A DNA stretch of 64,000 bases from Nymphaea colorata (taxonomy: Eukaryota > Streptophyta > Magnoliopsida > Nymphaeales > Nymphaeaceae). Below the pieces are notes generated by a model. It was not told where the DNA came from. It did not search any database and saw nothing but the letters and a program-made list of their open reading frames with translations. Where the stretch lies: contig NC_045138.2 in assembly GCF_008831285.2 (NCBI RefSeq), positions 10,798,571 to 10,862,570 of the forward strand, given 5' to 3'. The position numbers and the translations under genes are program-made. Below are positions 12,841 to 34,519 of this stretch, in pieces (position 1 is the stretch's first letter; each line of letters opens with the position of its first letter).

Positions 12841-14516
12841 CTCAACTCTTAAAATAACAACTGTTAGACCATAAACATACACATCTAATCTTTTCATCAC
12901 TATTGAATTATTTTTTACAATAAATTTGACAAATTTATCAACCCCTGTAGAATATTATTCATTTAACATGTTTACATCCAGCCAAATGCAATAGAAAAAT
13001 ATTTAATATACATAAATAATATAATAAACATTGTATAGTATTCCAAGTATCCAAAGTACCTTTTTTTGCTGATCCAACGTTTGTCTATATAGAGATTACT
13101 TGCATACTTCGTATCAACTTCTTGACACTACAAAGTCATTAGAAATATAATTCCTTGCTACATAAAGTATCATACATCATTATCCCTGGTGCAGGCAATT
13201 TATGTTGGTGAATAACAAAGTAACACTTTATGCATCATATTGATTTTCAAATGCCTATAAATTCCTACATAAATGCTATGCATACACATTAGATCATCAA
13301 GGTCACAATCATATCATATGCATTGTATTCAACAATGTCCAAGGATTTAGTGTCACTTTTACATGCATGGTTTTATTTTACTTTTTGTATCTCATTTCCT
13401 TTGGATGTATATATGAATGGGTCTACTAGTGTTCTAATCATTGATGTTTTTTCAATCAATGTTAATTGTTGTGGACACCACAAAATGCATGACTTTGTAC
13501 GTTCTAACATTGGTTTTGAGGGAAAGATGGAGCATACAGTAAAAACAATTTCAGTTATTTTGTTCAGATACTTGTTTTGAAAACTCATTGACACTTGAGA
13601 ATTCCTAGTTGGCAGCAAAAAATATATCTAGTGTAAGTCTGTTGTAGGACACACTTTACTAAAGCAAATGCTGCTTTCAGACTGATGGTATAAAAGAGGA
13701 AACGTGTTGGGATGATTCAAATGCTAGCAAATTGATGTCATTTTCTATCAAATATAAAATTAACAAGAAACGACACATTCAACATAAAAATAGAAAATAA
13801 TTTCACCTATATTACTAGACAAAATGTAATTTGAAGTAATAAAGATGGAAATAGAAACTTCCAGTGAAGTGGCAAGTGAATCTCTTAAATTTTGAACTTG
13901 AGTGGGGCCCTGTGGGAGAAACAAGTAATAAAGCATGAAAATATCAACCCACATCTTCAAAAGCATAAGTGACAAAATCATAAAGCAACATAAAGAAGTG
14001 TTATGGAGACAAACTAGATTTATTTGATAGAAAAAATTATATTTATAACCAAAATGTAATAAATGTCAATGAGATACCTCACAATAGAAAATTTCATAAT
14101 AAAAGGATAAAATTTCAGGATGCACATGGAACTAAGATAACAAACTTTGGAAGCATCAGAAGCATTAAAACATCTACCAGACATTCACTCTATAGTTGAA
14201 ACATCGAGACCACATGTTGTGTGATTTGTAGGGTAGGCGCATGGATGAATGTAAACATGATCAACCAACATCTTGTTCAAATACTTGTTACTACTGTACA
14301 AACTAGTGCTTTTGTGAGGTTTATATAGACATGAAAATTTGGATAAAAGTCGATGCTTGATTCTAGAAACAAGTATTTGACTCTTTTTGCCATTTCCTAC
14401 ATAAGGAATGATGGTCATCTTGAAATCTTATTGCTAGTTTTCTCCCTTGACATGCAGAATTGAAGCTATTGTTCTTTGGTCAAGATTATTGGTTGTCTTA
14501 AGGCATGTTTCCCCTT
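12841..14516. other. AT-rich flank of the Tat element
   Basis: No gene is recognised. Parts of 14180-14420 resemble 36240-36400 on the far side of the retrotransposon (for example TGTGAGGTTTATATAG followed by CATGAAAA), suggesting a common dispersed repeat. Confidence 0.35.
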
Positions 14517-17500
14517 TGACATTTGTTTTGAAATCGATGATTAGGGATTTTGAAGATTGAAATTGAGTTCTTTGTTGTGAACTCAAGATGTTTTTTGGGT
14601 TGAAATTATGATGATCAATTTTTGAGAAAAATGGCAAAGTTACCTTAGCAAGCAAAATTGATTTTGAATTATCCTTTGCTAAATCGTGTGATTTGGTCTA
14701 AGATATTAGAAACTTGAGATTTGATTAGATAGTGTTCATTTTTTTGATGAAACATAGGTTTCAAATTGTTAGAAAATGTGTTGTTTTCAAAACATATTTT
14801 GGCCAAGATTATGAATGTATTGCTTGTGTTTTTTTTTGAAAGTTAAGTGAAATTTACAAATTCTTGTTGCAATATGACTTGGTCACTTTTTACAACTCAA
14901 ATTTGAGTCACTTAATTTCTTGAGAAAGTGCATGCGGTGCTATTGGCTTTAAATGAGTGTGAATGTGTGAAATGAGAAGGAAAACTATATGAAACATGCA
15001 ACCTTCACCTCTCTAATCTCTCAAAAGTTATACATTTGGAACATTCATGCTTCACTCTCTCATAATCTCTCAAAGTCCATTATACATCATACAATCTACA
15101 CACAAAGATTGATTTTAATTAAAATGTAGGACTTTCTCTAAATGTGCTTATTATATTCTTAAGAACAAATGTTAGAGAAGTAGTCTATAAGCTTGTGACT
15201 TAACATAAAATTATCAAAATGATAAAGAATCTACAAATGATGTCAAAATCAGTTTTTAAAATAATGGGAGACGTGAATGGCATCCACTTTTGTCTCAAAA
15301 TTGCCATAAAAATTAGATTTTATTCTGATTTAATAGCTTAAAATTAAAATATTGATTATAAGAGTGCTTTACTCTTAAAAAATGATGACATTCAGTTTTA
15401 CTCCATATGAACTAGACATCCAAGTCGGCAAAAAAACATGTGTCATATACTCTCATTCATGTTGTGGTTTGTCTACATATGAATTAAGCACCTAAATCGG
15501 CAAAAGGAATGTCTCATGTGCTCTCATTCATGTCATAAAATTCTAAGAACCTTTCTTTCTCCCCCAAATCAAACTAAATTCTAGATTCTTATGCTAAAAG
15601 ATCCATTCATTTCTTGGACTATTAAAAAACTTTTGATCAGATTCTTTAGGGGATACAAAGATTAGGGTCCTAAGTATGATCTTAAATTGTTCTTTAGACT
15701 TTATCAATCACATGTAAGTCTGAAAATTGATGAATGAAATCTGAAAATTCTAAAAGTTTTCTAGAGAGCCGATTAGGTAGGATTAGAATCTCTTTTTTTT
15801 TTGTTCTACAAGACATAGCCGCTTTGTGGCTGAACATTGGTAAAGCTTGTAAACTTTGAAATTATTAAATTAACTCTTTTAAAGTATGATCTAATTTCAG
15901 CAACTTGTGTACACTTTACGTATGCATTGCTGGAATTAAACAAATTTTAAGATGAAAGAAAAGTCCGCTTTGTGGCTGAACATTGGTAAAGCTTGTAAAC
16001 TTTGAAATTCTTAAATTAACTCTTTCAAAGTATGATCTAATTTCAGCAACTTGCGTACACTTTACGTATGCATTGCTGGAATTAAACAAATTTTAAGATG
16101 AAAGAAAAGTAATTTCATAGCTTTGCACAATGAAAATCAATAAAATGATCCCTTTTCTTAAAAAGCAGTTTGCAAACGTGTTCCAACTTAATTTTAAAAG
16201 AGAAAAATGGCTTTTAACAAGAGATTACACGTGCATATATATAATAATATATATATATATATGTATACATATCTTACTCCTCAAAATGAAATTTTATCAA
16301 GGGACAGCATGACTCATGAATTATGATGATTCATGACTGGGTTCTTTTACGTTGGAAGATTGAAAACTAGTTTCTAATCTTCTCTACTACTCTTTATCAA
16401 TTAAATTGAAAAACATGAGGCAAAATGACTTTAATTGAAAAGGAAAACAAGACAATGTCAAGCTAGTTCGTCCATATTTTACCATGCAAGGGTGGATTAC
16501 ATTCATAAGAATGTATCGGTCTCTAATATTCATTTTCATCATATATGTTGCAGCAAAATCACAATTTCACTGTGGGATTCTCTCATAGTAGGGAGTTCAA
16601 AATGGTTTTAAACTTGTTGTTTTGAAAGGGACGTGGCCTTGGGGTCCTTTTCAAAATTTGATTCATGGGTTCATCTTTTAGAAAACTGACTCAAGCATGT
16701 ATTATGCATTAACATGTATATGTAATCTTAGTTTTTCCCTAGTTGGACATCATTTCCAGCCATGAAATAAATGAAAATAAACCCTTCCCATGAGTGCTTA
16801 AATTAAAAATAAGTGCAAGAAACTGAAATCGATGAAAATGAATTAGAGTCACCTACCTTGTGGTCGGTCTTGATGATTGATCTTTCTCCTTGCTTGTTTT
16901 CTAAATCAGGCAATCCTAAGCAAGAATCCCAGCTTGGATTCGAGCTTAGCAAAGCAAGAAGAAGAAGAATGACTTGCTGGAATTTGCAATGGGGAAGAGA
17001 GTGCTTCTCATCATGAAAATCCTAAGTAAGGGTTCACTTAAGCACCATAACTTAACAAAATCAATGGAGAGAATAGGGGAAGCCGAAGAAGACAATGAGA
17101 TAGTGGGGGAAGAGGGCTTGGACGAATTTTTCTTCTCCCCCTTGGCTTCTCCCTCCTAGCTGCAATTGGTGCCATATTTGGGTGCACCTAGGTCAAACCT
17201 ACATGGATTAAGTAAGTAAGGTGAGTTTAATTCGAAAACTTATTGTTTCTTTGGAATTTGATTTTTTTTAACTACGGGAGAGAGAGAGAGATTTATGTCT
17301 CTCTTTTCCTATGAACACATATTCATTTCTTTTGAAAATAATTTTTTATTTAATTGAGGGCAGATATTTTTGAAAAAGGAGCGGTGCGTGACCTCTTGGG
17401 TGGACTTCTGTCCACATGATCTAGGTTGGGCCCACACGTGGGTCCCACATGGTCTTTTAGATCGAATTAGATTCAATTCTCGGATTTAAATCAAAATTTG

Positions 17501-17715
17501 AATTTTGCAATCAGATTTGGATTCCAAATCCTAAGTTGGATCTAGTTTGGACTCGTAATCCTACTTTGGGAATCATGTCATGAGTCAAATTCATGATTTG
17601 AATCTAAATTGTGTTTAGATTCGAAATTGGCTTTGAAATTATAATTTTCCACAATTTTTTTGTAAAATTTTGACATTGCTTTAATTCTGATGTATAAAAA
17701 ATTGAGGTGTTAACA
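14517..17715 (-). repeat. 3' LTR of the Tat element
   Basis: Matches the right-hand LTR along most of its length, starting at TGACATTTGTT and ending GGTGTTAACA on the plus strand. Differences from the partner: a 146-bp tandem duplication (15819-16110), about 245 bp near 15535-15770 and about 90 bp near 16265-16350 that the partner lacks, and loss of about 860 bp present at 33078-33935 in the partner. Point differences are scattered, so the insertion is not recent. Confidence 0.85.
15819..16110. repeat. 146-bp tandem duplication inside the 3' LTR
   Basis: The segment starting CCGCTTTGTGGCTGAACATT and ending GATGAAAGAAAAGT occurs twice in tandem (15819-15963 and 15965-16108). The matching place in the other LTR (31979-32122) has a single copy, so the duplication arose after insertion of the element. 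Confidence 0.85.
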
Positions 17716-17730
17716 GATGCCCTCTTTGCT
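17716..17730 (-). promoter_or_regulatory. polypurine tract of the Tat element
   Basis: On the minus strand CAAAGAGGGCATC immediately precedes TGTTAACACC, the start of the 3' LTR. A purine-rich run ending in GGGCATC at this place is the usual plus-strand primer of plant gypsy elements. Confidence 0.6.
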
Positions 17731-18772
17731 GTTAAGCAAGTTAAAGAATTTGCTTAATAGCAAAGATTTACGCACCAAATTTTTGTAAATGGTTTGCAAC
17801 ATCTATTTTTCAAATAATGTTGAGTCATCCTCTCTCGAGGGGAAATGCTAGGCATAGACCTGAAATAAGAAGATTTTCCTCTATCTCACAGGAGACTTTG
17901 TAGAGGAATTAATGTTGATCAGAAAATTTTACAATTGTGAAGGTTTTTGCATTTGATGATTGGAGAACTTAGCCCTTGACGCCTTCTTAACTATTGGCAA
18001 GTGCTTTTTCTTTCTTTTTTGCTTAGCTTTTCACCTTTTGGCTTTACCTTTTGAATTTTGATTTTCTTTTTGAGCTACCCTTCACTCTTGGGGGAAATTC
18101 CTCACCACCCCAAAAGCTACTATGGAGTTTCACTGCTTTGGTGGTTTTGTGTAGTTTGCTTTATGTAATATCAAGTTTATCGGGCTTTCTTCTGAACCCT
18201 TGTAGCGAGCTTTGGGCTGGTAACTCTCAGACCAGTTGGCCTTACCAAATGTAAAACACTCTTCAGACTTACTCGAATTCAGAAGGCTTTAGAAGATTTA
18301 ATATAAGCAAAATGTTCATACATTGCTTTTTAACTTCATGGCATAAGCATAGGTTGTATGCCAACCCGCAAATGCAGAGCTTTGAACCAAATGAACATCT
18401 ACACTCACCCCGAGCTCATCGCTCAACTCATTTTGTGTGATAGCTTTTTCTTGCATCTTGCCAAGGTTTTTTTAGGTTACAAGAGCTTTTTTCTTACAGC
18501 ATCCCATGCTAAACCTTTACAAATGCCCAATTGTCAGGACCAACATTAATTTCTATACATTAATCCCTCAATTTCATTGAAATTTCTTGCATAGTTCAAG
18601 CCAATGCCTTGTTGTTGTCCTCAAGACTTGGGCTGAGTTTGAAAATTTTGGAAATTTTTTATGCATTTTTTGAAACTTTGTCTAAGGGATACTGTGCCCC
18701 TTAGTTGGTTTGAAAATTGATTAGAATGTGTTTATCAAAGCCCAATTGTTTTGAAATTTTTGAATTGCAAAT
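17731..18772. other. non-coding 3' region between integrase and 3' LTR
   Basis: No domain is recognised. Plus-strand open frames (for example 18051-18254) look accidental. Long spacers here are normal for Tat-lineage elements. Confidence 0.45.
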
Positions 18773-19324
18773 TCAAGTATAGAATTTCTTGAGATGCAAA
18801 GCACTAATTGGATCAGGGATTTCGACCCCAACGGCATCAATCAGTCGATAAGAATTATGAGGTAGAACTTCTTTGATGACATATGGTCCTTCCTAGTTTA
18901 GTGCTCATTTTTCTTTGGGTCTACTCCTGAGTGGAACTATAGATCTTAGTACAAGATCATTTACCTGGAGTTTTCTTTCAATGACCGATTTGACATAATT
19001 GTGATAGACTTCAGCATGCTCTGTCGCTTGCAGTCTTTTCTCGTCTAAGAGGTCTAATTAAGCAAGTCTCATTTTTTTATACTCTCTAATTGAGAGTTCA
19101 ATGAGCATAGCAAATTTCATTGTTGGTTTTTGGACATGTAATGGAAGGATAATTCCGGTTCCATACACTAATTCTGTTAGTGTAGCATTGGTGGGAGTTC
19201 GAACTGTAGTTTGATATGTCCAAAATGCATTGTGTATTTTCTTGTGCCAATCTCGGTCTATTTCAACAGTCCTTTTTAAGACACGAATCAAAATCTTGTT
19301 GGTTGCTTCCACTTAGCCATTACA
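18773..19324 (-). pseudogene. Tat integrase, C-terminal half (after the insertion)
   Basis: Minus-strand reading continues from the insertion edge: CNG, then a stop replacing Gln, VEATNKILIRVLKRTVE, then WHKKIHNAFWTYQTTVRTPT. The C-terminal domain reads GPYVIKEVLPHNSYRLIDAV and ISALHLKKFYT with a stop at 18773. Several in-frame stops show decay. It joins directly to the N-terminal half at 22901 once the inserted block is removed. Confidence 0.85.
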
Positions 19325-19397
19325 TGAAGTGTCATGCCGACTACCACTGTCAGGGGGGGGGAGCGAAGCTTAGCGAGCTTTAGAAGGCCGACCTTCT

Positions 19398-19444
19398 TGA
19401 AAGGTCAATACTGTATTTACAGGTCAGGACTGACCTTACCAAAA
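19398..19444. repeat. left arm of inverted repeat flanking the polymerase gene
   Basis: This 47-base segment, from TGAAAGGTCAATACTG to GACTGACCTTACCAAAA, matches the reverse complement of 22674-22720 with only a few differences. The two arms lie on either side of the polymerase ORF and resemble the terminal inverted repeats of linear plasmids, though they do not sit at the extreme ends of the insertion. Confidence 0.8.
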
Positions 19445-19463
19445 GCCTGCCTTATTCAGGCTT
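19443..19463. terminator. stem-loop just 3' of the polymerase stop
   Basis: AAGCCTG and CAGGCTT pair around a 7-base CCTTATT loop, eight bases beyond the stop codon of the minus-strand polymerase. In an organellar setting such a hairpin could stabilise or end a transcript. Its function here is inferred only from position. Confidence 0.4.
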
Positions 19464-19470
19464 TCCGCTT

Positions 19471-22302
19471 TTAGACTGCCACTGTCAAAGCGACAAGCCA
19501 TAAGTCTATGTCTATTACATCTATAGGTCGTGTGTCTATCCAAACATGATTGGAATCATAGACATTCTGTCTTTTATGACTATGTGGTAGTCGTAATTGG
19601 ATGAGAATCTCTTTTTTTCCAATCAGGAGTTTTTTCCAGTCGATTCTAAAATTAGCTACAGTGGGGATCTGACCCGTTAGAGATAGATCTGCTAATTGCT
19701 TTTTAAACCATTCAGATGTGACTAAATCTTTAGCTGGACCTTTGTGTTTAATAATTTGTCTATCATCTTCTATGTCTAACATATAACTTTTAGGTGCTAA
19801 GAAGATTCCTCTCTTGACATGGTCTTCGAGTTTAAACTTACCCAATTCAAAGGAAGAGATCAAATCGTCAGGAAGAGGACTTCCTAGAACTATTGAGTCA
19901 GTATCAGTATAGTAACAGTCAGGTCTGGAAATGTATGGGTACATATGAATACGAGCACATGCAGTGATAGCAGCAGCCAATTGAACAGCCGACATCTTAG
20001 GAGCTTTCCATTCATCGTCGTCAGCAAAGCTACTATTGCTACTGTAATTGACCATATAATAATGATCGGTCAGCTTCTCTGCAGATTTAAAATTATCCGT
20101 CATCATCAATTCTTCATATTTCTTGTGATTGCAGATCTCTGTTACTATACTTTCAGGATTCATACCAAATCTACCATATATGAAATTCATTAGAATCTTA
20201 TAAATATATGTCATAGCTTCATCACCAGCTTTCTTGGTTTCTAGTCTGCTTTCAAAAAGGTTTGAGATGAAGCCTTCGAAAGGACTTGACTTCTTCTCAA
20301 ACAAATACCCCCTAAGAGGAATGACTTGGTAACCTAAATCGTGTGCAAACTTCAACTCTTCGCTATAAAAGACTCCAATGAATTTACCTGTAGGAAAGAG
20401 TAAAGTACCATATTTATCCTTATAGGGCAAGAATGGACGTGATATATGAGTAGGACATACTACATAGGCCTCAATAAAGCCAAACAAGCTATCCAATCCA
20501 ACGCGCTCCAAATTATTCTTCCAGACAGGTATACCACAAGGCATAGAATAGGATTTCATAATATGAGGATATAATGAGTTCACATCATAATAGTAAAGAT
20601 TCTCACCATAGGGCTTATAGACATCAACATGACCCCCATAATAGCCACGCCTAATAAATGTGTCTTGGTTTCTTGTAGGTATATTAATATGAAAGGTCTC
20701 ATCATCAAAATAATTCTTACGAAAGATTTTCAAGGCAAGCGATGATATTGTCATCACATCCTCGACATCAATACTGTATTTAGACCAATTAATCTCTTGA
20801 GCCTTCAACATCACACCACCTAAGATCAGGATATCTTGGCGAAGATATTTGATCAAATCCACACTATTCAACAGAAGATTAGACACAGACAAATCCACAT
20901 GTGGGATAGAACCTTTGGATCCTAATTCAGGGCATAATGTCTTTCCCAATGTTTCCAGAGAGCTAGGCATTAATGTGCAAGAATCTCTGAAACGAAATAA
21001 TAACTTATCGCCAAGATAAACTTTCAACTCGTAAAGTTTATGATTCCTCAACAATGTTTTGATTTTATACTGATTACCACGATCAACATAATACCTCAGA
21101 ATGAAAATGCCATCAAATCGGGCAAAATTATGGAAATATACTGTTCGAAGACGAACACCACTATTTTTTTTCACATATTCTTCCAAAGTGGATAAAAACT
21201 CAAATAACATTTTTTCACTCCTCTCTTCAAAGGTAGGATAAACATTAATGTGGTTTTCACTGAAAAAGGTTTGAATAGAATAGGAAGGTAGGGATGTTAG
21301 ATCATCACCTGGTTTAACTACTAAGAAACCTGCAGCATAAGGAACATGAACATAATTCAAGACTATAGTCTCTAGATCGGCTACAATGAAAGGACGACAT
21401 TCTTTTTGATGACCTTTGATAGCGCTGATTTTAGAGGAAATACGAGTTTGTTTATACATCAGTGATAGGACTTCGGGTAGATTACCACTGACGATTTCAG
21501 AATCCATAACATTTCTGATTCTTCCAAGAAGATTTGATATATTAGGAAAGTCTAATGATTGACTGGAATCCTTAGATTGATAATAGATACGAATAAAGAC
21601 ACTTTTAATCACAGCATCATGATATTTCTCACCATTTAACCTAACAAGTTGTTCAATCATATCATATATCCTCTTTTTGTGAAGTCTATTACCTACAGGA
21701 TCACACAATGGAATAGCATGACCTAAAGTCAAGGATATATCATAGGATGCTGGTAATTGCATAGTATATCCAATTGTAAATTTCACATACTCAGAATCAA
21801 TATTGTAAGCGTACTGTTCGACCAACTGTATGAAGGCTAATGTTATAACTTCAAAATCATTAGTTCGAGGGTATGGCTCTACAAAACTCATAGAAGCATA
21901 GATAGATCCAGGATAAAGAAGTGTAAATCGAACATAATCTGTAATCCTTTGCAAAGTTTGCCAATAACTATATAAAGCATAATTGGTGAAATCAGAATCA
22001 AACCTCTTCTTGGTGAAAGAAGAATAAAACCTCTTATTGGTGAAATCAGAATCAAACCTCTTAGTCACATAGTACCTTTCATCAAACATAATACCAGACG
22101 CACGATTAAAGAACCTCAAACTCATATAGGACCTTTCATACAATATAATACCAGACGCACGATTAAATAACCTCATACTCACGCTCTCAAATTGGTGTGA
22201 CCTTTTAGCGCTCTCAAATTGGTGTGACCTTTTAGCACTCTCAAATTGGTGTGACCTTTTAGGGGATAAGGCCTGTCCCTTCATATAAGTTTTTTGTTTC
22301 AT
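19471..22302 (-). CDS. dpo: protein-primed family-B DNA polymerase (linear mitochondrial plasmid type)
   Basis: A 943-residue uninterrupted frame. Exonuclease motifs: ADLE (D309, E311), NFARFD (N392, D397) and YLRQD (Y486, D490). A YYGG motif lies at 554-557. Polymerase motifs: A DVNSLYP (573-579), B KILMNFIYG (702-710), C YTDTDS (798-803), and KHKG (852-855). FPTGKFIGVF (636-645) also suits this group. All catalytic acids are present. Such enzymes replicate linear plasmids from a terminal protein. The first ~300 residues, upstream of the exonuclease, could carry the terminal-protein part as proposed for related plasmids. Residues 14-40 contain three copies of KRSHQFES(A/V), 45-78 two copies of FNRASGI, and 81-107 three copies of KRFxSxFTx. 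The ATG at 22302 fits, with no in-frame alternative before the repeats. No partner RNA polymerase gene is present. Expression from its nuclear position is doubtful. Confidence 0.92.
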   Translation of the reverse strand: MKQKTYMKGQALSPKRSHQFESAKRSHQFESAKRSHQFESVSMRLFNRASGIILYERSYMSLRFFNRASGIMFDERYYVTKRFDSDFTNKRFYSSFTKKRFDSDFTNYALYSYWQTLQRITDYVRFTLLYPGSIYASMSFVEPYPRTNDFEVITLAFIQLVEQYAYNIDSEYVKFTIGYTMQLPASYDISLTLGHAIPLCDPVGNRLHKKRIYDMIEQLVRLNGEKYHDAVIKSVFIRIYYQSKDSSQSLDFPNISNLLGRIRNVMDSEIVSGNLPEVLSLMYKQTRISSKISAIKGHQKECRPFIVADLETIVLNYVHVPYAAGFLVVKPGDDLTSLPSYSIQTFFSENHINVYPTFEERSEKMLFEFLSTLEEYVKKNSGVRLRTVYFHNFARFDGIFILRYYVDRGNQYKIKTLLRNHKLYELKVYLGDKLLFRFRDSCTLMPSSLETLGKTLCPELGSKGSIPHVDLSVSNLLLNSVDLIKYLRQDILILGGVMLKAQEINWSKYSIDVEDVMTISSLALKIFRKNYFDDETFHINIPTRNQDTFIRRGYYGGHVDVYKPYGENLYYYDVNSLYPHIMKSYSMPCGIPVWKNNLERVGLDSLFGFIEAYVVCPTHISRPFLPYKDKYGTLLFPTGKFIGVFYSEELKFAHDLGYQVIPLRGYLFEKKSSPFEGFISNLFESRLETKKAGDEAMTYIYKILMNFIYGRFGMNPESIVTEICNHKKYEELMMTDNFKSAEKLTDHYYMVNYSSNSSFADDDEWKAPKMSAVQLAAAITACARIHMYPYISRPDCYYTDTDSIVLGSPLPDDLISSFELGKFKLEDHVKRGIFLAPKSYMLDIEDDRQIIKHKGPAKDLVTSEWFKKQLADLSLTGQIPTVANFRIDWKKLLIGKKEILIQLRLPHSHKRQNVYDSNHVWIDTRPIDVIDIDLWLVALTVAV
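22178..22263. repeat. 27-bp tandem repeat (x3) in the polymerase N-terminus
   Basis: CTCTCAAATTGGTGTGACCT with its extension TTTAGCG recurs three times at a 27-bp period. Because the period is a multiple of three, it encodes a 9-residue repeat and keeps the frame. Confidence 0.9.
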
Positions 22303-22464
22303 GGTTTGTTTTTTTTTTACTTAACTTAACTCCTATATTCTTCGTATTGGGGTGTATTTTTTACCCGAACCCTAAAAGAGGGTAGGGGGTGTATTTTCTT
22401 CTACGTATTCTCGACTGGTTCTGAACATCATGGTACCGAACTTCATGGTACCGGTATCTATTAA
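22303..22464. other. 5' flank of the polymerase ORF
   Basis: Includes a poly-T run (22308-22317), CCCTAAAAGAGGGTAGGG and a doubled CATGGTACCG at about 22429-22453. No promoter can be assigned. Confidence 0.35.
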
Positions 22465-22642
22465 CCTACTACTCTAGTAGTAGACTAATACTACTCATTC
22501 ATTTGTTAGTCTATTCCCCTCCAAGGTGGGGGGGGATGGGATATGCAGGTTTATTTTACGATACTAGTAGCCTACTACTCTAGTAGTAGACTACTACTAC
22601 TCATTCATTTTAGTCTATTCCCCTAAAAGGGGAGATGGGATA
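22465..22642. repeat. direct repeats of ~75 bp with near-palindromic core
   Basis: CCTACTACTCTAGTAGTAG starts two similar segments (22465-22545 and 22571-22642). Both continue through ACTACTCATTCATT and TAGTCTATTCCCCT and end GATGGGATAT. The core CTACTACTCTAGTAGTAG is nearly its own complement, so each copy could form a small hairpin. Similar short repeats are frequent in organellar plasmids. Confidence 0.8.
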
Positions 22643-22656
22643 TAGGGTGTATTTTT

Positions 22657-22866
22657 CAAGACAGTCTTGATCTTTTTGGTAAGGTCAGTCCTGACTTTGA
22701 AATGCAGTATTGACCTTTCAATAAGAATCAGTCCTGATCTTTCAAGATAGTGATCTTTTTGGTAAGGTTAGTCCTGACTTTGAAATACAGTATTGAAATA
22801 CTACCCTCATGATTAGACCATGTCCCTGACCTTACCAAAAAGATCAAGACTATCTTGAAAGGTCAG
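22657..22866. repeat. cluster of inverted and direct repeats at the right side of the insertion
   Basis: CTTGATCTTTTTGGTAAGGT occurs at 22667 and, slightly changed, near 22751. Its reverse complement ACCTTACCAAAAAGATCAAG occurs at about 22830-22849. Segment 22657-22688 can pair with 22827-22858 to form a long hairpin, and 22674-22720 pairs with the left arm at 19398-19444. The blocks look like rearranged copies of one terminal repeat. Confidence 0.75.
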
Positions 22867-22900
22867 GTTCGCGCCTCACGAGCTCCACGGGGAGAAGCGG

Positions 22901-23528
22901 CTGAGGGTAATATGGGGCAGAAATGTAATGTTGTATTTTGTGTTTGTGACAGAGATTGTGCATTCTTATTTTTAAAATGAATACCATTGTCAGAAATGAT
23001 ATCGTGCGGGATCTCAAATCTACACAAAAGGTTTTTGTGAATGAAGGACACTACACGTCGTCATTCAACTATTTTTAAAGTGATTGCTTCAACCCATTTG
23101 ATGAAGTAATCTATAGCTGCAAGAAAATATCTATATCCATTTGAGGCAGGTGGATTGATTGGACCGACCACATCGAAGGCCCACATAGAAAACGACCAAG
23201 GTGAGCTGACTGAATAAATGTATTCTGCTGGAGCATGAATTGATGGTGCATGGAACTGACATTTAATGCACTTTTTGACAAACTGGTGACAGTCTCTCTG
23301 CATTGTGGGCCAATAGTACCCTGCTCTGACTATATGTTTGACGATGGTCTGATACCCTACATGTCCCCTACAAATTCCTTCATGAGCTTCCTGAATGACT
23401 TCTAGTACCTCATTTTCATCGAGATGTCTAGCGTATTCCATACTGAATCCTCTTCTATATAGGACGTTAGCTGAAATAAAATATCTTGAAGGTATGTGTC
23501 TCAGAGCTCTTTGCTCTTTTCGAGACAT
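22901..23528 (-). pseudogene. Tat integrase, N-terminal half (before the insertion)
   Basis: On the minus strand an H2C2 zinc-binding region is seen (HEGICRGHVGYQTIVKHI, then YYWPTMQRDCHQFVKKCIKC), followed by the core with SMWAFDVVGPINPP (first Asp), YFLAAIDYFIKWVEA and IISDNGIHFKNKN (second Asp). A small frame slip precedes APYYPQ, which abuts the insertion at 22901. The order and spacing match the gypsy integrase family. Confidence 0.88.
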
Positions 23529-23549
23529 TTCAGGTGGAAGTGTTCTTGT

Positions 23550-24030
23550 TCAGAGAAAATCTTTGATGTTCTGATACCATGGTGTTTCTCTACTTTCTGC
23601 TTGTAATACCTGTTCTGGTATGACAAAAGATGGTTGTTCGAGTCTTCTGTCTTCAAAAGATTTGATAGATTCTCTAGGTTTGAAGCTGAAGGTAGAGCCT
23701 AAACTGGCCAACCCGTCTGCAATCGGGATCAATTCTTTTTTGACATGTAAGAGCTGATACTCCTCAAATTGTTTTAAGAGGGAAGTTGCTAACTTTTGAT
23801 ATGGTTTCAATTTCTGATCTTTGACTTGTCAATCTCCATTGACTTGACTAACAACTAAGAGAGAATCCACAGAAGCATTGTGATACCTTGGATTAAGGCT
23901 TCATATTCTGCCATATTATGTGTGCAATATAAATTCAATTTGAGGGAGTAAGGAATCATTTCATTTTCTAGTGTAATGAAAAGTAACCCAATGTCTACCC
24001 CAGCTGTGGTTTTAGATCCATCGAAATACA
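23550..24030 (-). pseudogene. second (archaeal-type) RNase H of the Tat element
   Basis: Fragments MYFDGSKT, HNMAEYEAL and then KKELIPIADGLASLGSTF match the additional RNase H domain that Tat-lineage gypsy elements carry between their own RNase H and integrase. Frame changes interrupt it near 23830. This domain is the main evidence for the lineage. Confidence 0.75.
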
Positions 24031-24057
24031 TCTCCCAAATTGACTCTAGTTCGGTCG

Positions 24058-24608
24058 TTAGGATTTGCTCATCTGGAAAATTATCATTTGTTTTAATTTC
24101 TTCAGATAGAGAAAATTTGTCAATTGATCTGCAATGGCTTGACCCTTGATTGATTTCTGTGACACATATTCCAAATCATATTGTATCAGCAGAATTTGCC
24201 ACTTTGCTATCCTTCCATTTAGAAATGGCTGTTCAAGGATATATTTGAATGGATTAAGTTTAGATAAATTTAACATTGCATGACAATAGGTAGTGCCTTT
24301 TTGATACAACCATAACAAGGCTAAGCAAGTTTTTTCCATGTGCGAGTAGTTCTTTTCATACTGCACAAATGCCTTATTGATGTAATAAATGGCATGTTAT
24401 ATTCGACATCCTTCTTCATATTGAGCCAAAAATCCACCATAGGATGAATTGTTAACTGTGATGTAAAGCAATAGAGGTTTCCCCAAAATTGGGGGTTTCC
24501 AAATCGATGGGCAAAGAAGGTATTTCTTGATCTTTTCGAATGAGGTCTGACATTCATGTTTCCATTCAAGCTTGACTCATTTCTGTAGTAAATGGTTGAA
24601 GGGTTCAC
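24058..24608 (-). pseudogene. gypsy RNase H region
   Basis: NYSHMEKTCLALLWLYQK, HAMLNLSKLNPFKYILEQPF and GRIAKWQILLIQYDLEYV are conserved segments of the gypsy RT-associated RNase H. The preceding overlapping frame supplies its start. The reading frame is broken between the pieces. Confidence 0.82.
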
Positions 24609-25473
24609 ATCTCATGATAAGATTAGATTTAAACCTTCTAATTGACTGAATTTTGTCTTGCGAGCTACGTAACTCCTTTAGATTTGTTGGTAGTGATATA
24701 TCAATAATCTCCTTTGTTTTGGAGGGATCCATCTCGATTCCTTTTTTGCTGACCATAAATCTCAAAGCTTACCAGATTCTACACCAAATACACACACTTT
24801 TGTGGATTCAATCCAAGCTTTCTGTTGTAAGAGTCTATCAAAAACTTGAGAGAGAATGCTGATGTAGTTTTCCCTTATTTTTGACTTGATTAGCAGATCA
24901 TCCACATATGCATCCATGATTTGATGCATTTAATCATGAAAAATAGCTGTCATAGCCCTTTGATATGTTGCCCCAACGTTCTTCAGACCAAACGACATTA
25001 CAGTATAGCAGAAAGTGCCCCATGAGGTTGTAAATGATGTTTTGGCCTGGTCTTCAGTGGCCAACTTAATTTGGTTATAGCCAGAATATCTATCCAAAAA
25101 GAAGAACATTGGCCTGCGATACTGTCTACCAGTCAATGTTTGGAAGTGGATAGTCGTCTTTTAGTATGGCTTTATTCAAATCTCTGAAATCGATGCAAAG
25201 ACGAATTTTGTCATTTTTCTTTGGGACTACCATGATGTTTGTCAATCATTCAGGATAGTCAATTGTTCAGATGAACTCTGCCTTTAGTAAGTCTTCTAGG
25301 CCTTCCTTAACGTTCCCCTCAAGATAAGGGTCTAGTTTCCCCAATTTTTGTTTGATTTGCTTGCATTCCGGTTTCAATGGCAATCGATGCTCAACTAATT
25401 TTATATCAAATCCTGGCATGTCTTCATAAGTCCATGCAAAGGTTTCTTGATGATTTTTTAGGAAGTCTATCAA
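24609..25473 (-). pseudogene. gypsy reverse transcriptase
   Basis: The minus strand shows FAWTYEDMPGFD (RT entry), FFFLDRYSGYNQIKLATEDQ (first catalytic Asp), FCYTVMSFGLKNVGATYQRA and then MDAYVDDLL at about 24895-24920, the catalytic YVDD box, just after a stop. KKGIEMDPSKTKEIIDI follows. All RT blocks are recognisable but lie in several frames. Confidence 0.88.
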
Positions 25474-26451
25474 CTTTTTTCTTTCTTCTGTTGGGAGACT
25501 TGCTTCAATTTGTAAAATCTTTGGATTCTCTTCTGTACCAATATTAATTTTCTCAATTGGACCATTAATAAAAAGTGACTGTTGATCTTGTTTTCTTATT
25601 TGGATGAACTTTAGAATTCTACCATAATGAGTTCTGGATTTACCTCCTTGAAGCCTTTTGATGTTAGATCCTCAGGTGCCATCCTAAAGATTATAAAAAG
25701 GTTAGATGGAATTTGAGACATTTTATGTGGAAGTAAGTTCCATATGTCATTGCATATTTGAAGGTATTACAAAATAAAGACACTTGGTCAATTAGAGTAC
25801 AATGATGACAAAATAACAAAATGATCATTAGATGATAAAATGATAGCGGATTTGTTGATTCAAACTGATGGTGAACATCTGCCTATAGTGTTCCTCTTGA
25901 TAAAAGGTACTGGCTTGAATTCTTCCTTGGCATCCATTTTTTCATAACTTTGGCATCTTAGGGCTTGAGTACCACGCTGTCCTAACAAGATAATTGGTTC
26001 CAAGATTCCATTTTTATATTTGCCAAGGCTAGTGAATGACTGGTAGCTATAGCGTAAGAGTAAATCCAATCATTTCTCATTCTGGCAAAAATTTTTGAAT
26101 AATAGATGGCTTTTATAACTTGTTTTAGGATTGGTACCCTTTTTTACCCACATTTGTTTTTTTAGCTTCTGAATGGCCAATTTGCTCAAACCATGAGATA
26201 TTTCTTATTCTTTGCAGACTTGAATACTAGGTACTTCGATTGTATATGTTGATACTGAAATCATTGGATGCATAAGATGATTTTGCATGTCCTCTATATA
26301 GATGATTATAGTATTCCTATTGTGAGTCCATTTGACGCACTGATGTAGAGTAGATGGAACCGCATTGGTAGCATGGATCCATGATATGCCAAGAAATAGG
26401 TTGAATGAAGGTTTTATATCTACAACATGAAAAAAAACCCAATGATATGTC

Positions 26452-27517: not shown

Positions 27518-28404
27518 TTATGATATCTTGGTGTGATCAATGAAAGACTTGATTGAAGCATTGGAAATGAGGCTCCTCAGTGGTTGTGTCAAATTGGTGA
27601 TGATCAATCTCAATGCATGGGATTGGGAGATTGGGTCTCTCATCTTGTTGCAAGAAGAACTCCATCTTTGAATAAAATCCCTAACCTTTTCACCTAGCCT
27701 TTGTTTCAGATAACACAGTATGGTGATCGTTGGTATTGTTTCAACATTCTGGATGAACCTTTTAATGAAAATGTTGATTAGTTTATCAAAATTTTTCAAT
27801 TCGACTGAGTTTATGTACTCCCGGTACTTCCAAACTCCTTGAGAAGCATCGAAAGAGAGCTCTGTGATTGTGGCAAAATTTATAGCATTCCACAAAGAAC
27901 ATGGCCAAATGTGTCTTTGGGTCTCCATGGCCATCGAATTTGATAAATTTCTTAGGCAAGTTTTGTATGTGTTTGTCATTTTCAAAACTTTCATAGAAAT
28001 CTTCGCAGGTAAAATTTCTTTTGTTGTTGCCCTCGAGTTGAACCACGTTCAACTTCTTTTCAACTTCCTGAATTTTTGTTTTCCAAGATTCCCCTTCTCT
28101 TTCTTGGAAGTCTTTGGTTCTTCCTCACTACTTAATTTTGTTGTATCATCTTCAGAAGAGTCAGAACTACTCAATAAAGATTTCTTTGTTTCTTCCTTTT
28201 CTTCTTGGCCCTCTCTGCCTGGGCTTGCTCTTCATTGAACATAGTCATGTATCTCCGAAATTTCTTGTATTCTTCATATTCTAGATCATTGGCTTCTGTC
28301 CTGGGAGGTGTTTTGGAGGAGGATTCTTCTCCCTTGTCTCCCAAAAAGGCTTGTTCTAGTTCCATCTCAATTCTCTTCCTTTGTTGGCTTCTAGTCTTCA
28401 CCAT
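27518..28404 (-). pseudogene. gag of the Tat element
   Basis: The likely start is the Met at 28404 (MVKTRSQQRKRIEMELEQA). The gag core (retrotransposon gag domain) reads IQNLPKKFIKFDGHGDPKTH then LAMFFVECYKFCHNHRALFR, and after a frameshift YINSVELKNFDKLINIFIKR, RLGEKVRDFIQRW. The N-terminal part contains an acidic segment and a Lys/Arg cluster (RAKKKRKKQR). Confidence 0.82.
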
Positions 28405-28619: not shown

Positions 28620-29260
28620 CATCCCGCCATTTTACGTATTCAGGACCCATGTCTAGACCAATGATAAGGTACAAGTGAGCAAACGATTCCCAACGTTCTT
28701 GGGTATAAGTGTATATTCCGAACCACTCTTCGGTATCCAATTCACACTCTACGATGGCTCCTTTAGACTCAATTGGATATGCTTTCCTTTGATGCAGTGA
28801 GAATTGTCTGAGGCAATGATCTGGATGGTATTCAACTATGTAAAATGGTCCTCATAGAAGACTTCCTCTGGCTGGGTTGTAGGTGTATCTTGACTTGATG
28901 ACTTCTGGATCAAAGAAGTCTCAAATGATGGCGAAGTCATCCACTTCCTCCATCTTCTTATGGTAGTGCTCCATACTAAATAAGTGGCCATCGGTGTTCT
29001 GAAAATAGTATGATTGTGGCCCTACGTGTTTGTAGAACCATGTTTGTAATGTGAAGACATATCCTTCTATTGAATCTGCATCCCCAATTGAAAATTTGGT
29101 CAATCTTCGGTAAAGGAATGCCAAGGCTGCCATTGCTATAGATATGCAACAGACTTTGACATGCCCCCATTTTTTGAAGAGGCAACGTGTGCGAAAATTC
29201 ATTATGTGTTCTTCACTGTTGAAGAAGATGAGACCTGCATTACAAGTCACCATGGAGTTT
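28620..29260 (-). pseudogene. leader ORF of the Tat element, plant-mobile-domain-like
   Basis: The frame at 28921-29253 contains VKVCCISIAMAALAFLYRRL, TKFSIGDADSIEGYVFTLQ and TWFYKHV. This pattern (AALAxLYRxL, then GxxxxLQxWxxxH) resembles the plant mobile domain found in transposons and in MAIL/MAIN-type proteins. Extra ORFs upstream of gag are known in Ogre/Tat elements. The assignment is by eye only. The neighbouring minus-strand frame below 28900 appears to continue the same ancient ORF. Confidence 0.5.
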
Positions 29261-30908
29261 TTGTACTTGTTTGTGACACTTCTAGATAGTGAAGCAGGGT
29301 TGACATATTGGGAATATGTTTCACCAAGTTCTTGTAGTTGGAGGTATTGATGTCCATCCTTTTTTAGAAATGGTCAACTTTGTTTTCCTGTAAGTTTACG
29401 AATTACTTCTAGAGTTTTGACTAGACATTGATTGACAAAGAACGGGTCTTCAATTGGTCCTCTTGGGTCACATTTGGCTTTGGCAAACCCATAATGCTGG
29501 AAAACTCATCTAAAGTAATTGCCAATTAACCCCATGGGAATCAGAATGTATTGTTCCTTGGGTTCTATATTTCGACACTTGCGTGGATTAGACTGTCGTT
29601 GATAGGTTACATGGCAAGACTGACTGCTTCTTCGAGACCGCAATCCTTTAAGTGGTCCAAAAACATACATCGAAAAGTTGGGTATCATGAAAGATACCAC
29701 TAAGCTATGTAGACTCCACTTGGGATGATGCGAAGTCCGGATCGACCTTGACATGACCCAAATAAAATATGGTCATATGAGAAAATACTTTCTGAGTCCA
29801 TCTGGACAAGAGAAAGTATTAGATGTTGACATAAATTGAACTAATAGAGACTTGAGAAAAGTTTTGGTATCGGGTTTGGACGTCGGTTTGGATATAAGAT
29901 AAAACATCACATCTCATGCATCATACAAGCAATTAATGAAAATTTGATAATGCATTCCCTAGGACACTTGCCTATATGCATTATTTTGAAAATGGATATT
30001 GGAACCTATAGAAAATAAATGGGTAAATTGTTCTTGATTTATCCAAAATTCAAGATATGTCTATATACCAAATCTATGGTACTGGGATAGACTCCTTCAA
30101 GATTTTCTATATTTGGACTCTCCAATTCTTCTTGTTCACCCATCGATATACCAGAACTATTGTCTGTTTTGATACTAATGGGGGGACTTCTCAGTCCAAT
30201 TGGGTGGTCCAGCTGTATAGCTATATCTTGGACTAATGTCCTAGAAATAGCTCGGCAACATGATGACCGAGATATGGCATAGGTAAGGATTTGTTTTTCA
30301 AAATTTATGAGAAGATGCAAAATAGATGGCTCTATTGCATACATTCCGAAGAGATAGATTTAAAAATTTGAGAGCATACTGGGCTTCATACAATCCCTAA
30401 ATTGAGAAGGGGTAGGGTAAATTGAAACAAAAGGGGTTCATAGAATATCCTCAATATGCGCTAACATGATAATGGCATTCATGTTTATGAAAAATTTTGT
30501 GCAATGATATCCGGCATTGTGACAATAACTTGTATATGAACCAATAAATCCGTAGGCAGATGATGATGGGTCCTACCGGGTGTGCCATCTATTCGCGCTC
30601 CATCCCATCCTTGGGGGCGTATCAGCAAAAATTCTTTTCAAATTAAGGTTTTGACGAAATTTTCACAAGAAAGGGATCCACCCATTGGTACGAGGTCCAA
30701 CCAATCCTGCCAAAGACTAAGGATCATTTGGGTCATGTATGAGTTATTAATGCAAATCTTATATGTTTGTGCATTGAGGTTTTGGTTTCAAGAATCAAAG
30801 TTTATCTTGAATAAGCAACTTGTTTTTGAAAATAAATTCAATGGAAAATTATTTGAAAAGTTATTCGAAGATTGGAGGGGTTTCAAATCGATATGAAAAC
30901 CTTTGTTT
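29261..30908 (-). other. 5' leader of the Tat element
   Basis: Open frames at 29506-29754 and 30039-30344 may be further fragments of the leader ORF but match no family I recognise. The primer-binding site expected next to 30909 could not be matched to a common tRNA end. Confidence 0.4.
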
Positions 30909-33900
30909 TGACATTTGTTATGAAATCAACGATTAGGGATTTTGAAGATTGAAATTGAGTTCTTTGTTGTGAACTCAAGATGATTTTTGGGTTGAAATTG
31001 TGATGATCAATTTTTGGAAAAAATCGCTAAGTTACCTTAGCAAGCAAAATTGATTTTGAATTCTCCTTTGCCAAATAGTGTGATTTGGTCTAAGACATTA
31101 GAAACTTGAGATTTGATTAGATAGTGTTCATTCTTTTGATGAAACATATGTTCCAAATTGTTCGAAAATGTGTTGTTTTCAAAACATATTTTGGCCAAGA
31201 TTATGAATGCATTGCTTGTGTTTTTTTGAAAATTAAGTGAAGTTTATAAATTCTTGTTGCAATATGACTTGGTCACCTTTTGCAACTCAAATTTGAATCA
31301 CTTAATTTCTTGAGAAAGTGCATGTAGTGTTATTGGATTTAAGTGAGTATGAATGTGTGAAATGAAAAGAGAAACTATATGAAACATACATCCTTCACTC
31401 TCTCATAATCTCTCAAAATTTATACATTTGGAACATTCATGCTTCACTCTCTCATATTCTCTCAAAGTCCATTACACATCATACAATTTACACATAAGGA
31501 TTGATTTTAATTAATATATAGGACTTTCTCTAAATGTGCTTATCATATTCTTAAGCACAAATGTTAGAGATGTAGTCCATAAGCTTAAGACTTAACATAA
31601 AATTATCAAAATGATGAAGAATCTACAAATGATGTCAAAATCAGTTTTTAAAATAATGGGAGACGTGGATGACATCCACTTTTGTCTCAAAATTGCCATA
31701 AAAATCAGATTTCATTCTGATTTAATGACTTAAAATGAAAATATTGATTCTAAAGGGTGTTTGACTCTTAGAAAATGATGACATTCGGTTTGACTCCATA
31801 TGAACTAAACATCCAAGTTGGCAAAAAGCATGTGTCATATACTCTCATTCATGTTATAGTTTGTCTACATATGAATTAAGCACCTAAATCGGCAAAAGGA
31901 ATGTCCCATGTGCTCTCAAGGCTTTTAGGGAGCTGATTAGGTAGGATTAGAATTTTTTTTTGTTCTACAAGACATAGTCGCCTTGTGGCTGAACATTGGT
32001 AAAGCTTGTAAGCTTTGAAATTCTTAAATTAACTCTTGCAAAGTATGATATCATTTCAGCAACTTGCATACACTTTACATATGAGTTGCTGGAATTAAAC
32101 AAATTTTAAGATGAAAGAAAAGTGATTTCATAGCATTGTACTACGAAAATCAATACAATGATAATTTTTTTTTAAAATGAATTTGGAAATGTGTTTCAAC
32201 CTGATTTTACAAGAGGAAAATGACTTTAACAGGAGATTGCACGTGTATATATATAACAATATATATATATATAAGAAGATTGAAAACTAGTTTCTAATCT
32301 CCTCTACCACTCTTTATCAATTAAATTGAAAGACATGAATCAAAATGACTTTAATTGAAAAGGAAAACAAGACAATGTCAAGCTAGTCATCCATAATTTT
32401 GCCATGCAAGGGTGGATCACATTCATAAGAATGTATCCATCCCTAATAGGCATTTTCATCATATATGTTGCAGCAAAATCACTCTCTTACCATGGGATTC
32501 TCTCATGGTAGAGAGTTCAAAACGGTTTTAAACTTGTTGTTTTGAAAGGGATGTGGCCTTGGGCTCTTTTTAAAATTTGACTCATGGGTTCATCTTTTAA
32601 AAAAACCGATTCATACATGTATTATGCATTAACATATATATTTAATCATAATTTTATCATAACTAGACATCATTCCAGCCATGAAATAAATGAAAATAAA
32701 CCCTTCCCACGAGTGCTTAAATTAAAAATAAGTGCAAAAAAATGAAATGGATGAAAATGGATTAGAGTCACCTACCTTGTAGTCGGTCTTGATGATTGAT
32801 TCTTCTCTTTGCTTGTTTTCTAAATCAAGCAATCCTAAGCAAGAACCCAAACTTGGATTTGAGCTTAGCAAAGCAAGAAGAAGAAGAATGACTTGTTGAA
32901 ATTTTCTGTGGGGAAGAGGGAGCTTCTCACCACAAAAATCCTAAGTAAGGGTTCACTTAAGCACCCTAACTTAACAAAATCAATGGAGAGAATAGGGGAA
33001 GCCGAAGAAAAGAATGAGATAGCGGGGGAAGAGGGCTTGGACGAATTTTTCTTCTCCTCCTTGGCTTCTATTTCCTAGCTCCTTAGTTGCAGTAATTTGA
33101 TGAAGACTTCAAAAATTCGTCCCCCCCTTGGTTGCCAAGGGGAGGTTTATATAGAGGAGGAGATGGGTTCAACCACCTCCTTAACTCACCATAGAAACTT
33201 ACTTAAGACTTTGGGGATTTGTAAAATGGATTAAATAGGGTTTAATGATCCTAGTTGACCACACCTGGCTCATTTACACGAGCTAGGTTGGCTGGGTTTG
33301 GCGTGGTCTACCTTGGTTCAGACTTAGCTGCCCATCTTTGACCAAAATTTTGGGTGAAAATGCCCTTGCCCAAGGTTTTGTCTTATTTTATTCTATTTAT
33401 TTTTTTCTTTGTTTGAAATTGAGCTTGTTAGGTCAAAACCTAGTTGTTAAGCTCTAAATGTTATTGAATTTTGACAATTCAATTAAAATTTGAAAATTCT
33501 ATCAAATTTGGTTGAGAAATGGTATTTTTGTCCATAACTTGATTGAAGATGGATTTCAATCAAATCAAGCTTTGGTTTGAAATACATTTGATTTATGCAT
33601 TTTACAAATCCAAATGTATATTTCCCTTTTATAAAATCGTAAATTAGGTTTTGTAATCTCAATTTGATCATAGAAGGGCAAAATTGTCTAGATTGGTCAA
33701 ATTTGACCAATTGACCAAAGTCAAAGCTCATTTGCGAGTAGTTTGATTTTATTCGAGGTAACTCAATGAATATGAGATAAGAAAGCTCTTAATTGAGCTA
33801 AATTGTACTTTGATTGAGCTTAGCCAAAGTGGATTCGATCCGGTCAAGGTCTATTTTTGTCCACTAATTTGTCCTGGGACAAACCTACCCTTTTGACTGA

Positions 33901-34519
33901 GCTGAGCTCGTGTTGACTGAGCCTAACTGAGTTTGGCACCATATTTGAGTGCACCCAGGTCAAACCTACTTGGATTAAGTAGGTTAGGTGAGTTTAATTC
34001 TAACACTTATTGCTTCTTCGGAATTTGATTTTTCTTTAACTAAGGGAGAGAGAGAGGTATTAATGTCTCTCTTTTCGTATGAACCTTTATTCATGTATTT
34101 TGAAAATGATTTTTTTTTAATTGATGGGAGATATTTTTGAAAAAGGGGGTGTGTGACCTCTTGGGTAGGCTTCTGACCATACGAGCTAGGTGGGCCCACT
34201 CGTGGGTCCCACATGGTCTTCTAGATTGAATTAGATCCAATTCTCGGATTTAAATCAGATATGGATTTCAAATGACATCTGTAATTGGATTTGGATTCCA
34301 AATGGCATTTGTAATTGGATTTGGATTCTAAATCCTAATTTGGATCTAGTTTGGACTCGTAATCTTACTTTAGGATTCGTGTCACAAGTCAAATTCATGA
34401 TTTGAATCTAAATTGTGTTTAGATTCAAAACTGGCTTTGAAATTGCAATTTTTCACAATTCTTTTGTAAAATTTTGACATTGCTTCAATTCTGATGTACA
34501 AAAATTTGGGGTGTTAACA
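30909..34519 (-). repeat. 5' LTR of the Tat element
   Basis: Matches the left LTR from TGACATTTGTTATGAAATC to GGGGTGTTAACA (plus strand). It keeps about 860 bp (33078-33935) missing from its partner and lacks the partner's tandem duplication. Together the two copies let the ancestral LTR be inferred at well over 3 kb. Confidence 0.85.

What the first reader, a model, noticed from the sequence alone, without database searches (positions are those of the whole stretch)
19325..22900. Intact mitochondrial-plasmid-type DNA polymerase inside a nuclear retrotransposon
A 943-codon protein-primed family-B DNA polymerase with every exonuclease and polymerase motif present sits in the integrase gene of a decayed Tat-lineage element. 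The host element carries many stops; the polymerase carries none. This indicates either recent nuclear capture of plasmid or mitochondrial DNA, or selection to keep the frame. It could be a nuclear refuge of a linear plasmid, or a passenger able to spread with its retrotransposon.
Basis: partly seen in the sequence, partly recalled or inferred. Interest (0 to 1): 0.92.

Follow-up and report, generated by a model that had tools for sequence, protein, structure and literature searches.

The report
Mitochondrial plasmid gene stranded in nucleus
A water-lily chromosome carries a 3.6-kb scrap of mitochondrial DNA, including a plasmid's DNA-copying gene, pasted into an old jumping gene; it looks like a dead fossil rather than a working or spreading element.

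Summary
[quoted passage not shown] The insert is 19324-22901 (3,578 bp). Five related Tat copies read across the site are all empty: 2 bp lost, no target duplication.

The plant is probably Nymphaea colorata (its 617,195-bp contig has the published mitogenome length). Both outer parts of the insert match that contig, so this is a NUMT carrying plasmid dpo.

"Intact" is too strong: the native C-terminal tail is gone and motif Kx3NSxYG carries S713F. Against a chr12 copy dN/dS is about 1; the window lineage has 13 nonsynonymous and 3 synonymous changes, near neutral expectation. At that divergence an open frame is unremarkable (P 0.11-0.39). None of 39 other scored Tat copies lies at a dpo match, so spread is not indicated.

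Nuclear captures of such plasmids are published. Less usual: chr12 holds an 8.4-kb plasmid-like block (dpo, rpo, another ORF) abutted on both sides by a 4,736-bp direct duplication (99.56% identical), while the searches found no dpo or rpo match on the mitochondrial contig. The nucleus may preserve a plasmid that the mitochondrion has lost.

The parts
19324..22901 (.). Whole insert (3,578 bp) in the Tat integrase; the empty site has 2 bp (CT) here, no target-site duplication
   Evidence: five Tat relatives L057-L061 continuous across the site
19326..19444 (.). Mitochondrial-chromosome DNA: 19326-19393 = C782:474237-474303 (97%), 19393-19444 = C782:471697-471748 (100%)
19445..19505 (.). Unassigned junction piece that supplies the foreign C-terminus DLWLVALTVAV; not in the other long dpo copies
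19471..22320 (-). [quoted passage not shown]
20182..20184 (-). Codon 713, F where 97% of 118 relatives have S (motif Kx3NSxYG)
20236..20238 (-). Codon 695, T where 97% of 118 relatives have A
21963..22262 (-). Tandem duplications with 27-, 27- and 57-nt units in the variable N-terminal region of dpo
22397..22649 (.). Region upstream of dpo, 72% like chr12:1446659-1446907
22654..22867 (.). Mitochondrial dispersed repeats (22654-22796 up to 95%; 22826-22867)
19058..19323 (-). Downstream part of the interrupted Tat integrase (...NG*VEATNKILIRV...)
22902..23549 (-). Upstream part of the Tat integrase, with Integrase_H2C2 domain in 23061-23549
14515..17715 (-). 3' LTR of the host element
30907..34519 (-). 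5' LTR of the host element
24930..25160 (-). Fragment of the element's reverse transcriptase (RVT_1)
27518..28048 (-). Retrotrans_gag-like frame of the element (below the Pfam cut-off)

Best explanation
It is a NUMT. In a Nymphaea mitochondrion, DNA of a linear plasmid (dpo with its upstream region) lay next to, or became joined to, repeat-rich mitochondrial-chromosome DNA. A 3.6-kb piece reached the nucleus and served as filler when a double-strand break inside an already old, dead Tat-type retrotransposon was repaired by end-joining: 2 bp lost, no target duplication. The gene had lost its native C-terminal tail, or lost it on joining, and has since drifted without detectable selection; it is still open because too few mutations have fallen on it. 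Shown: mitochondrial matches in both outer parts, dpo in between, the empty site, the relative ages, the near-neutral pattern. Inferred: a join inside the mitochondrion before transfer, repair by end-joining, and lack of function.
For: Mitochondrial matches in both outer parts, on contig C782 whose length (617,195) equals the published N. colorata mitogenome (PMC6092842 passages). Empty site in 5 of 5 Tat relatives read, 2 bp lost, no duplication. Separate dpo pieces elsewhere in the same genome: 10 DNA matches besides the window; 9 of the 10, at eight loci, were fetched, and against window 17000-26000 they show, apart from the insert itself, only one weak 78-bp match to the host element. LTR K2P 0.098 against 16 changes in 1,557 nt for the window dpo lineage. 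dN/dS against chr12 0.94 over 811 codons and 1.03 over 884. 2 of 14 window-lineage amino-acid changes fall at sites at least 95% conserved, neutral share 19%. 8 of 16 window-lineage changes are C>T or G>A (not tested against an expectation), the direction reported for nuclear organelle inserts (PMC7037861 passages). The TpG/CpA excess of the surrounding DNA is missing in the insert's non-coding 721 bp (0.78; 1 of 591 overlapping windows elsewhere as low).
Against: The frame is fully open, and with the LTR indel rate that is somewhat lucky (P 0.11). dN/dS rests on 9-14 synonymous differences, and two other pairs come out lower (window-chr4 0.85, chr12-chr4 0.74; the pairs with the second chr4 piece 1.08-1.54), so moderate constraint is not excluded. 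Against the deeper N. thermarum split the window's changes lean to variable sites (2 of 22 at sites at least 95% conserved, 4.8 expected), which I read as selection in the mitochondrial past. Over the whole insert neither TpG/CpA (13 of 215 windows as low) nor CpG (42 of 215 as high) is extreme. The mitochondrial repeats also occur at some nuclear places (C1, C7, C8, C229), so a nuclear source of the outer parts is not excluded. 19445-19505 and 22868-22901 are unassigned; the searches meant for the latter and for 22204-22656 did not complete. No reads, RNA-seq or methylation data were seen.
Confidence: 0.92

Rival explanations
1. The polymerase frame is kept open by selection in the nucleus (a domesticated or refuge copy that could act in mitochondria).
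For: 949 codons without a stop or frameshift inside a broken element; seven of eight tested motif patterns match.
Against: dN/dS about 1 against chr12 and 13 N: 3 S in its lineage; S713F and A695T at sites 97% conserved in 118 relatives, neither seen in any of them; native tail replaced; the other Nymphaea copies read over that motif are damaged too: chr12 TAG at codon 600 and C802Y, chr4 G716S and truncated, N. thermarum G716C.
Confidence: 0.03
2. The retrotransposon picked up the polymerase and carries it as a passenger when it transposes.
For: The insert lies inside an LTR element of a high-copy family (342 candidate places). A review reports nuclear plastid pieces near Ty3 elements and suggests they were multiplied with them (PMC7037861 passages).
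Against: The element was already old (LTR K2P 0.098) and the dpo lineage is about one fifth as diverged. None of 39 other scored Tat copies lies at a dpo match; five of five read are empty. 302 of 342 candidates were not scored.
Confidence: 0.02
3. Assembly chimera: plasmid or mitochondrial DNA wrongly joined into a nuclear contig.
For: The outer parts are organelle DNA, which is abundant in total DNA (general knowledge); no reads could be checked.
Against: The same integrase gene resumes after a 2-bp gap relative to empty relatives. The searches found no dpo on the mitochondrial contig, and the other long copies differ from this one by 3.7% or more, so no donor contig for a mis-join is seen.
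Confidence: 0.03

Closest known systems
Mitochondrial linear plasmids found in plant nuclear genomes (Wei, Gong and Han 2023, PMC10583447)
   Same: Same polymerase family; [quoted passage not shown]
   Different: The words Nymphaea and retrotransposon do not occur in its main text (supplements not seen). Plasmid dpo flanked by mitochondrial-chromosome DNA inside a dated retrotransposon is not described in what I read.
NUMTs, including complex or mosaic organelle inserts joined by NHEJ (PMC7037861 passages; PMC6215612 abstract)
   Same: Organelle DNA as filler at a nuclear break, several fragments in one insert, C>T biased decay.
   Different: Here the main cargo is a plasmid gene with no match found on the sequenced mitochondrial chromosome.
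Linear mitochondrial plasmid of Brassica napus (dpo P0119, on an 11,640-base record)
   Same: Homologous dpo, 44% identity over 84% of the query (alignment).
   Different: A plasmid of its own (recalled); the window holds one plasmid gene with a foreign tail and no rpo.

Membership tests
Plant mitochondrial linear-plasmid dpo (protein-primed family-B polymerase) | DNA_pol_B_2 domain and phi29-like fold | tested here: met
   Pfam E 3.3e-94; profile hit to phi29 polymerase 1xhx E 2e-10; Foldseek 2pyj E 1.3e-24
Plant mitochondrial linear-plasmid dpo (protein-primed family-B polymerase) | All exonuclease and polymerase motifs intact (a mark of a working member, not of descent) | tested here: not met
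   7 of 8 patterns found; Kx3NSxYG reads KILMNFIYG; LExE and Tx2GR not tested
Plant mitochondrial linear-plasmid dpo (protein-primed family-B polymerase) | C-terminal tail of the near relatives (also a mark of a working member) | tested here: not met
   tail absent; similarity ends at 19506
Mitochondrial linear plasmid (whole element) | Terminal inverted repeats enclosing dpo and rpo | tested here: not met
   the inverted repeat 19393-19444/22674-22725 matches a mitochondrial dispersed repeat; the insert has room for dpo only and no rpo frame was found
NUMT | Mitochondrial DNA inside a nuclear chromosome | tested here: met
   window lies on a 44-Mb contig
NUMT | End-joining signature: no target duplication, small loss or microhomology | tested here: met
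   2 bp lost, no duplication
Tat-lineage Ty3 retrotransposon (host element) | Second, archaeal-type ribonuclease H before the integrase | tested here: inconclusive
   frame 23855-24175 reads like one by eye (recalled feature) but has no Pfam match
Tat-lineage Ty3 retrotransposon (host element) | Long LTRs with gag, RT and INT pieces in Ty3 order | tested here: met
   (gag below the Pfam cut-off); this places it in Ty3, not by itself in Tat

The most novel reading that the evidence does not exclude
The nuclear chromosomes of N. colorata are the only place in this assembly that still records a mitochondrial linear plasmid (dpo, rpo and a third gene): several separate captures, one nearly whole and abutted by a 4.7-kb duplication, while the 617-kb mitochondrial chromosome shows none of it. 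The plasmid was lost from the mitochondrion within the genus, and its former neighbours there can be read from the nuclear copies.
Probability: 0.45. Interest if true: 0.5.

Novelty: new member of a known kind. Interest (0 to 1): 0.35.

Why it matters
It shows how easily an open frame in a dead transposon suggests function: dating by the LTRs and counting changes against sister copies explains it without selection. The wider pattern, nuclear fossils of a plasmid with no match found in the sequenced mitochondrial chromosome, offers a way to date plasmid gain and loss in plant mitochondria.

Tried and rejected
Nuclear refuge, selection and passenger readings were rejected for the reasons given under the rivals. 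The inverted repeat around the ORF looked like plasmid termini but matches a mitochondrial dispersed repeat. The two ends of the chr12 plasmid block were compared for terminal inverted repeats: only a 12-base match between them, so I do not call it complete. Viral contigs: 6 stretches matched a pattern, none encodes a relative. phmmer with the single protein against PDB found nothing; the profile found phi29 polymerase. CpG depletion did not separate insert from host (42 of 215 windows as high). Paper searches whose listings showed no report of this locus (listings only, several capped). Warren et al. 2016 is not held.
Full report
What is there. The minus strand of 19471-22320 is one open frame of 949 codons, 943 from its first ATG at 22302. 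It is a DNA_pol_B_2 protein (Pfam E 3.3e-94). A protein search found 151 matches and listed 120; the closest by identity is N. thermarum (91% over 68%), the highest-scoring an unnamed one at 76%. Nine of the 120 rows lie on contigs over 20 Mb (Cinchona 2, Primulina 4, Mercurialis 2, Olea 1), so copies on chromosome-sized contigs are not rare. The family profile reaches phi29 DNA polymerase, and the predicted structure (mean pLDDT 78) matches phi29 polymerase first.

Host genome. The window is C1:10798571-10862570 of a 407.8-Mb assembly. Its contig C782 is 617,195 bp, the length published for the N. colorata mitogenome (PMC6092842, passages and section 6 read). A PPR protein of the window is 93% identical to N. 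thermarum and at most 38% to the other 119 listed.

The target. Long direct repeats at 14515-17715 and 30907-34519 are taken as the LTRs of the host element, K2P 0.098 over 2,170 aligned sites. Gag-like, reverse transcriptase and integrase pieces lie in short frames. The flank 18780-19320 has 342 candidate places in the genome; 40 were scored, and the 39 besides the window are 86-87% identical. Five were read: all five are continuous where the window is interrupted, so the insert is 19324-22901, with 2 bp lost and no duplication.

What the insert is made of. Its left end matches C782: 19326-19393 at 97% and 19393-19444 at 100%. Its right part, 22654-22867, belongs to a repeat family with 1,327 matches; of those listed, all but the window itself and one on C229 are on C782 (24 fetched places, 23 on C782). 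The same repeats also match a few nuclear places on C1, C7 and C8, which look like other NUMTs. The published mitogenome is 49% repeats. Between these parts lies plasmid DNA: dpo from 19506, and an upstream region 72% like that of the chr12 copy. No dpo match lies on C782: 0 of 11 DNA matches and 0 of 8 family matches, at the sensitivity of those searches.

Other copies. On chr12, 1438613-1446995 holds a plasmid-like block: an rpo frame of 987 aa (RNA_pol E 3.8e-22), a 301-aa frame without a Pfam match, and dpo with one TAG and the family tail. A 4,736-bp sequence abuts it on both sides as a direct duplication, with 21 mismatches and no gap. Its two ends share no terminal inverted repeat that I could find, so it may not be whole. 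chr4 holds rearranged, inverted pieces. The chr12 rpo-ORF region has 9 matches, on C1, C4, C5 and C12 and none on C782. In a FastTree of 17 sequences the Nymphaea copies group together (support 0.986), with N. thermarum inside.

Is the polymerase sound? Seven of eight tested motif patterns match; Kx3NSxYG does not (the motif is listed for phi29 polymerase in PMC4974454, passages, where LExE and Tx2GR, which I did not test, are listed too). S713F and A695T occur in none of the 118 relatives with letters there. The tail is replaced. All four Nymphaea copies that I could read over that motif have some damage: the window, chr4 (G716S) and N. thermarum (G716C) in the motif itself, chr12 by a stop and C802Y elsewhere.

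Selection or luck? Window against chr12: dN/dS 1.03 over 884 codons, 0.94 over 811 codons without the N-terminal repeats. Other pairs: window-chr4 0.85, chr12-chr4 0.74, and 1.08-1.54 for the four pairs with the second chr4 piece for which a ratio could be formed. With chr4 as outgroup over 519 codons, the window lineage has 13 nonsynonymous, 3 synonymous and 0 nonsense changes; the chr12 lineage 4, 4 and 1. Neutral expectation for 16 is 11.0, 4.5 and 0.5 (p 0.58). At that divergence (0.0103) the chance of no nonsense is 0.39, and 0.11 with the LTR indel rate. At the LTR divergence (0.049) it would be 0.011 and 2e-5, so the insert is much younger than the element unless it was under selection. 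Leaning the other way: against the deeper N. thermarum split, 2 of 22 changes fall at sites at least 95% conserved, where 4.8 would be expected, which I read as selection in the mitochondrial past. The synonymous counts are small.

Mechanism. Plant NUMTs are reported to enter as filler at breaks by end-joining, with 1-7 bp microhomology or none, often from several fragments (PMC7037861, passages; PMC6215612, abstract). The 2-bp loss, missing duplication and mixed content fit. Whether the plasmid piece was joined to mitochondrial DNA inside the mitochondrion or during integration is open.

Known or new? Wei et al. 2023 report mitochondrial linear plasmids in plant nuclear genomes (parts 1 and 2 of 3 read). 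This locus is a new member of that kind. The possible loss of the plasmid from the mitochondrion, and the 4.7-kb duplication around the chr12 copy, go beyond what I read there, but an unassembled free plasmid is not excluded.

Change made on checking: confidence in the best explanation was lowered from 0.93 to 0.92, because the mitochondrial repeats of the insert also occur at some nuclear places.

Noticed in passing
L026/L009/L010 (C12:1433877-1451731): Plasmid-like block of 8,383 bp in chr12 abutted on both sides by a 4,736-bp direct duplication (99.56%, no gaps), far longer than usual target duplications; its left end is a 1,400-bp palindrome holding the start of rpo twice, head to head.
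   Followed up: partly
L027 (C36:1-7311): Small unplaced contig with a family-B polymerase piece and, by eye, ATPase-like and protease-like frames; looks like a Polinton, possibly a contaminant.
   Followed up: no
L011 (C4:9668922-9673994): Inverted, rearranged plasmid pieces with dpo, rpo start and the 301-aa ORF; 772-bp inverted copies are 98.4% alike.
   Followed up: partly
window 28921-29373: A plant mobile domain-like frame (below the Pfam cut-off) lies upstream of gag inside the host element.
   Followed up: no
window 6257-7717: A 486-aa PPR frame with a 93% match in N. thermarum; the other 119 listed proteins are at most 38% identical.
   Followed up: no
G000:C229:8200-8345: A 34-kb unplaced contig carries the mitochondrial repeat at 94%: a NUMT or an unmerged mitochondrial piece.
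   Followed up: no
window 21963-22262: Three tandem duplications in the dpo N-terminus, with unit lengths (27, 27, 57) that are multiples of three, suggesting that they arose while the gene was still working.
   Followed up: no
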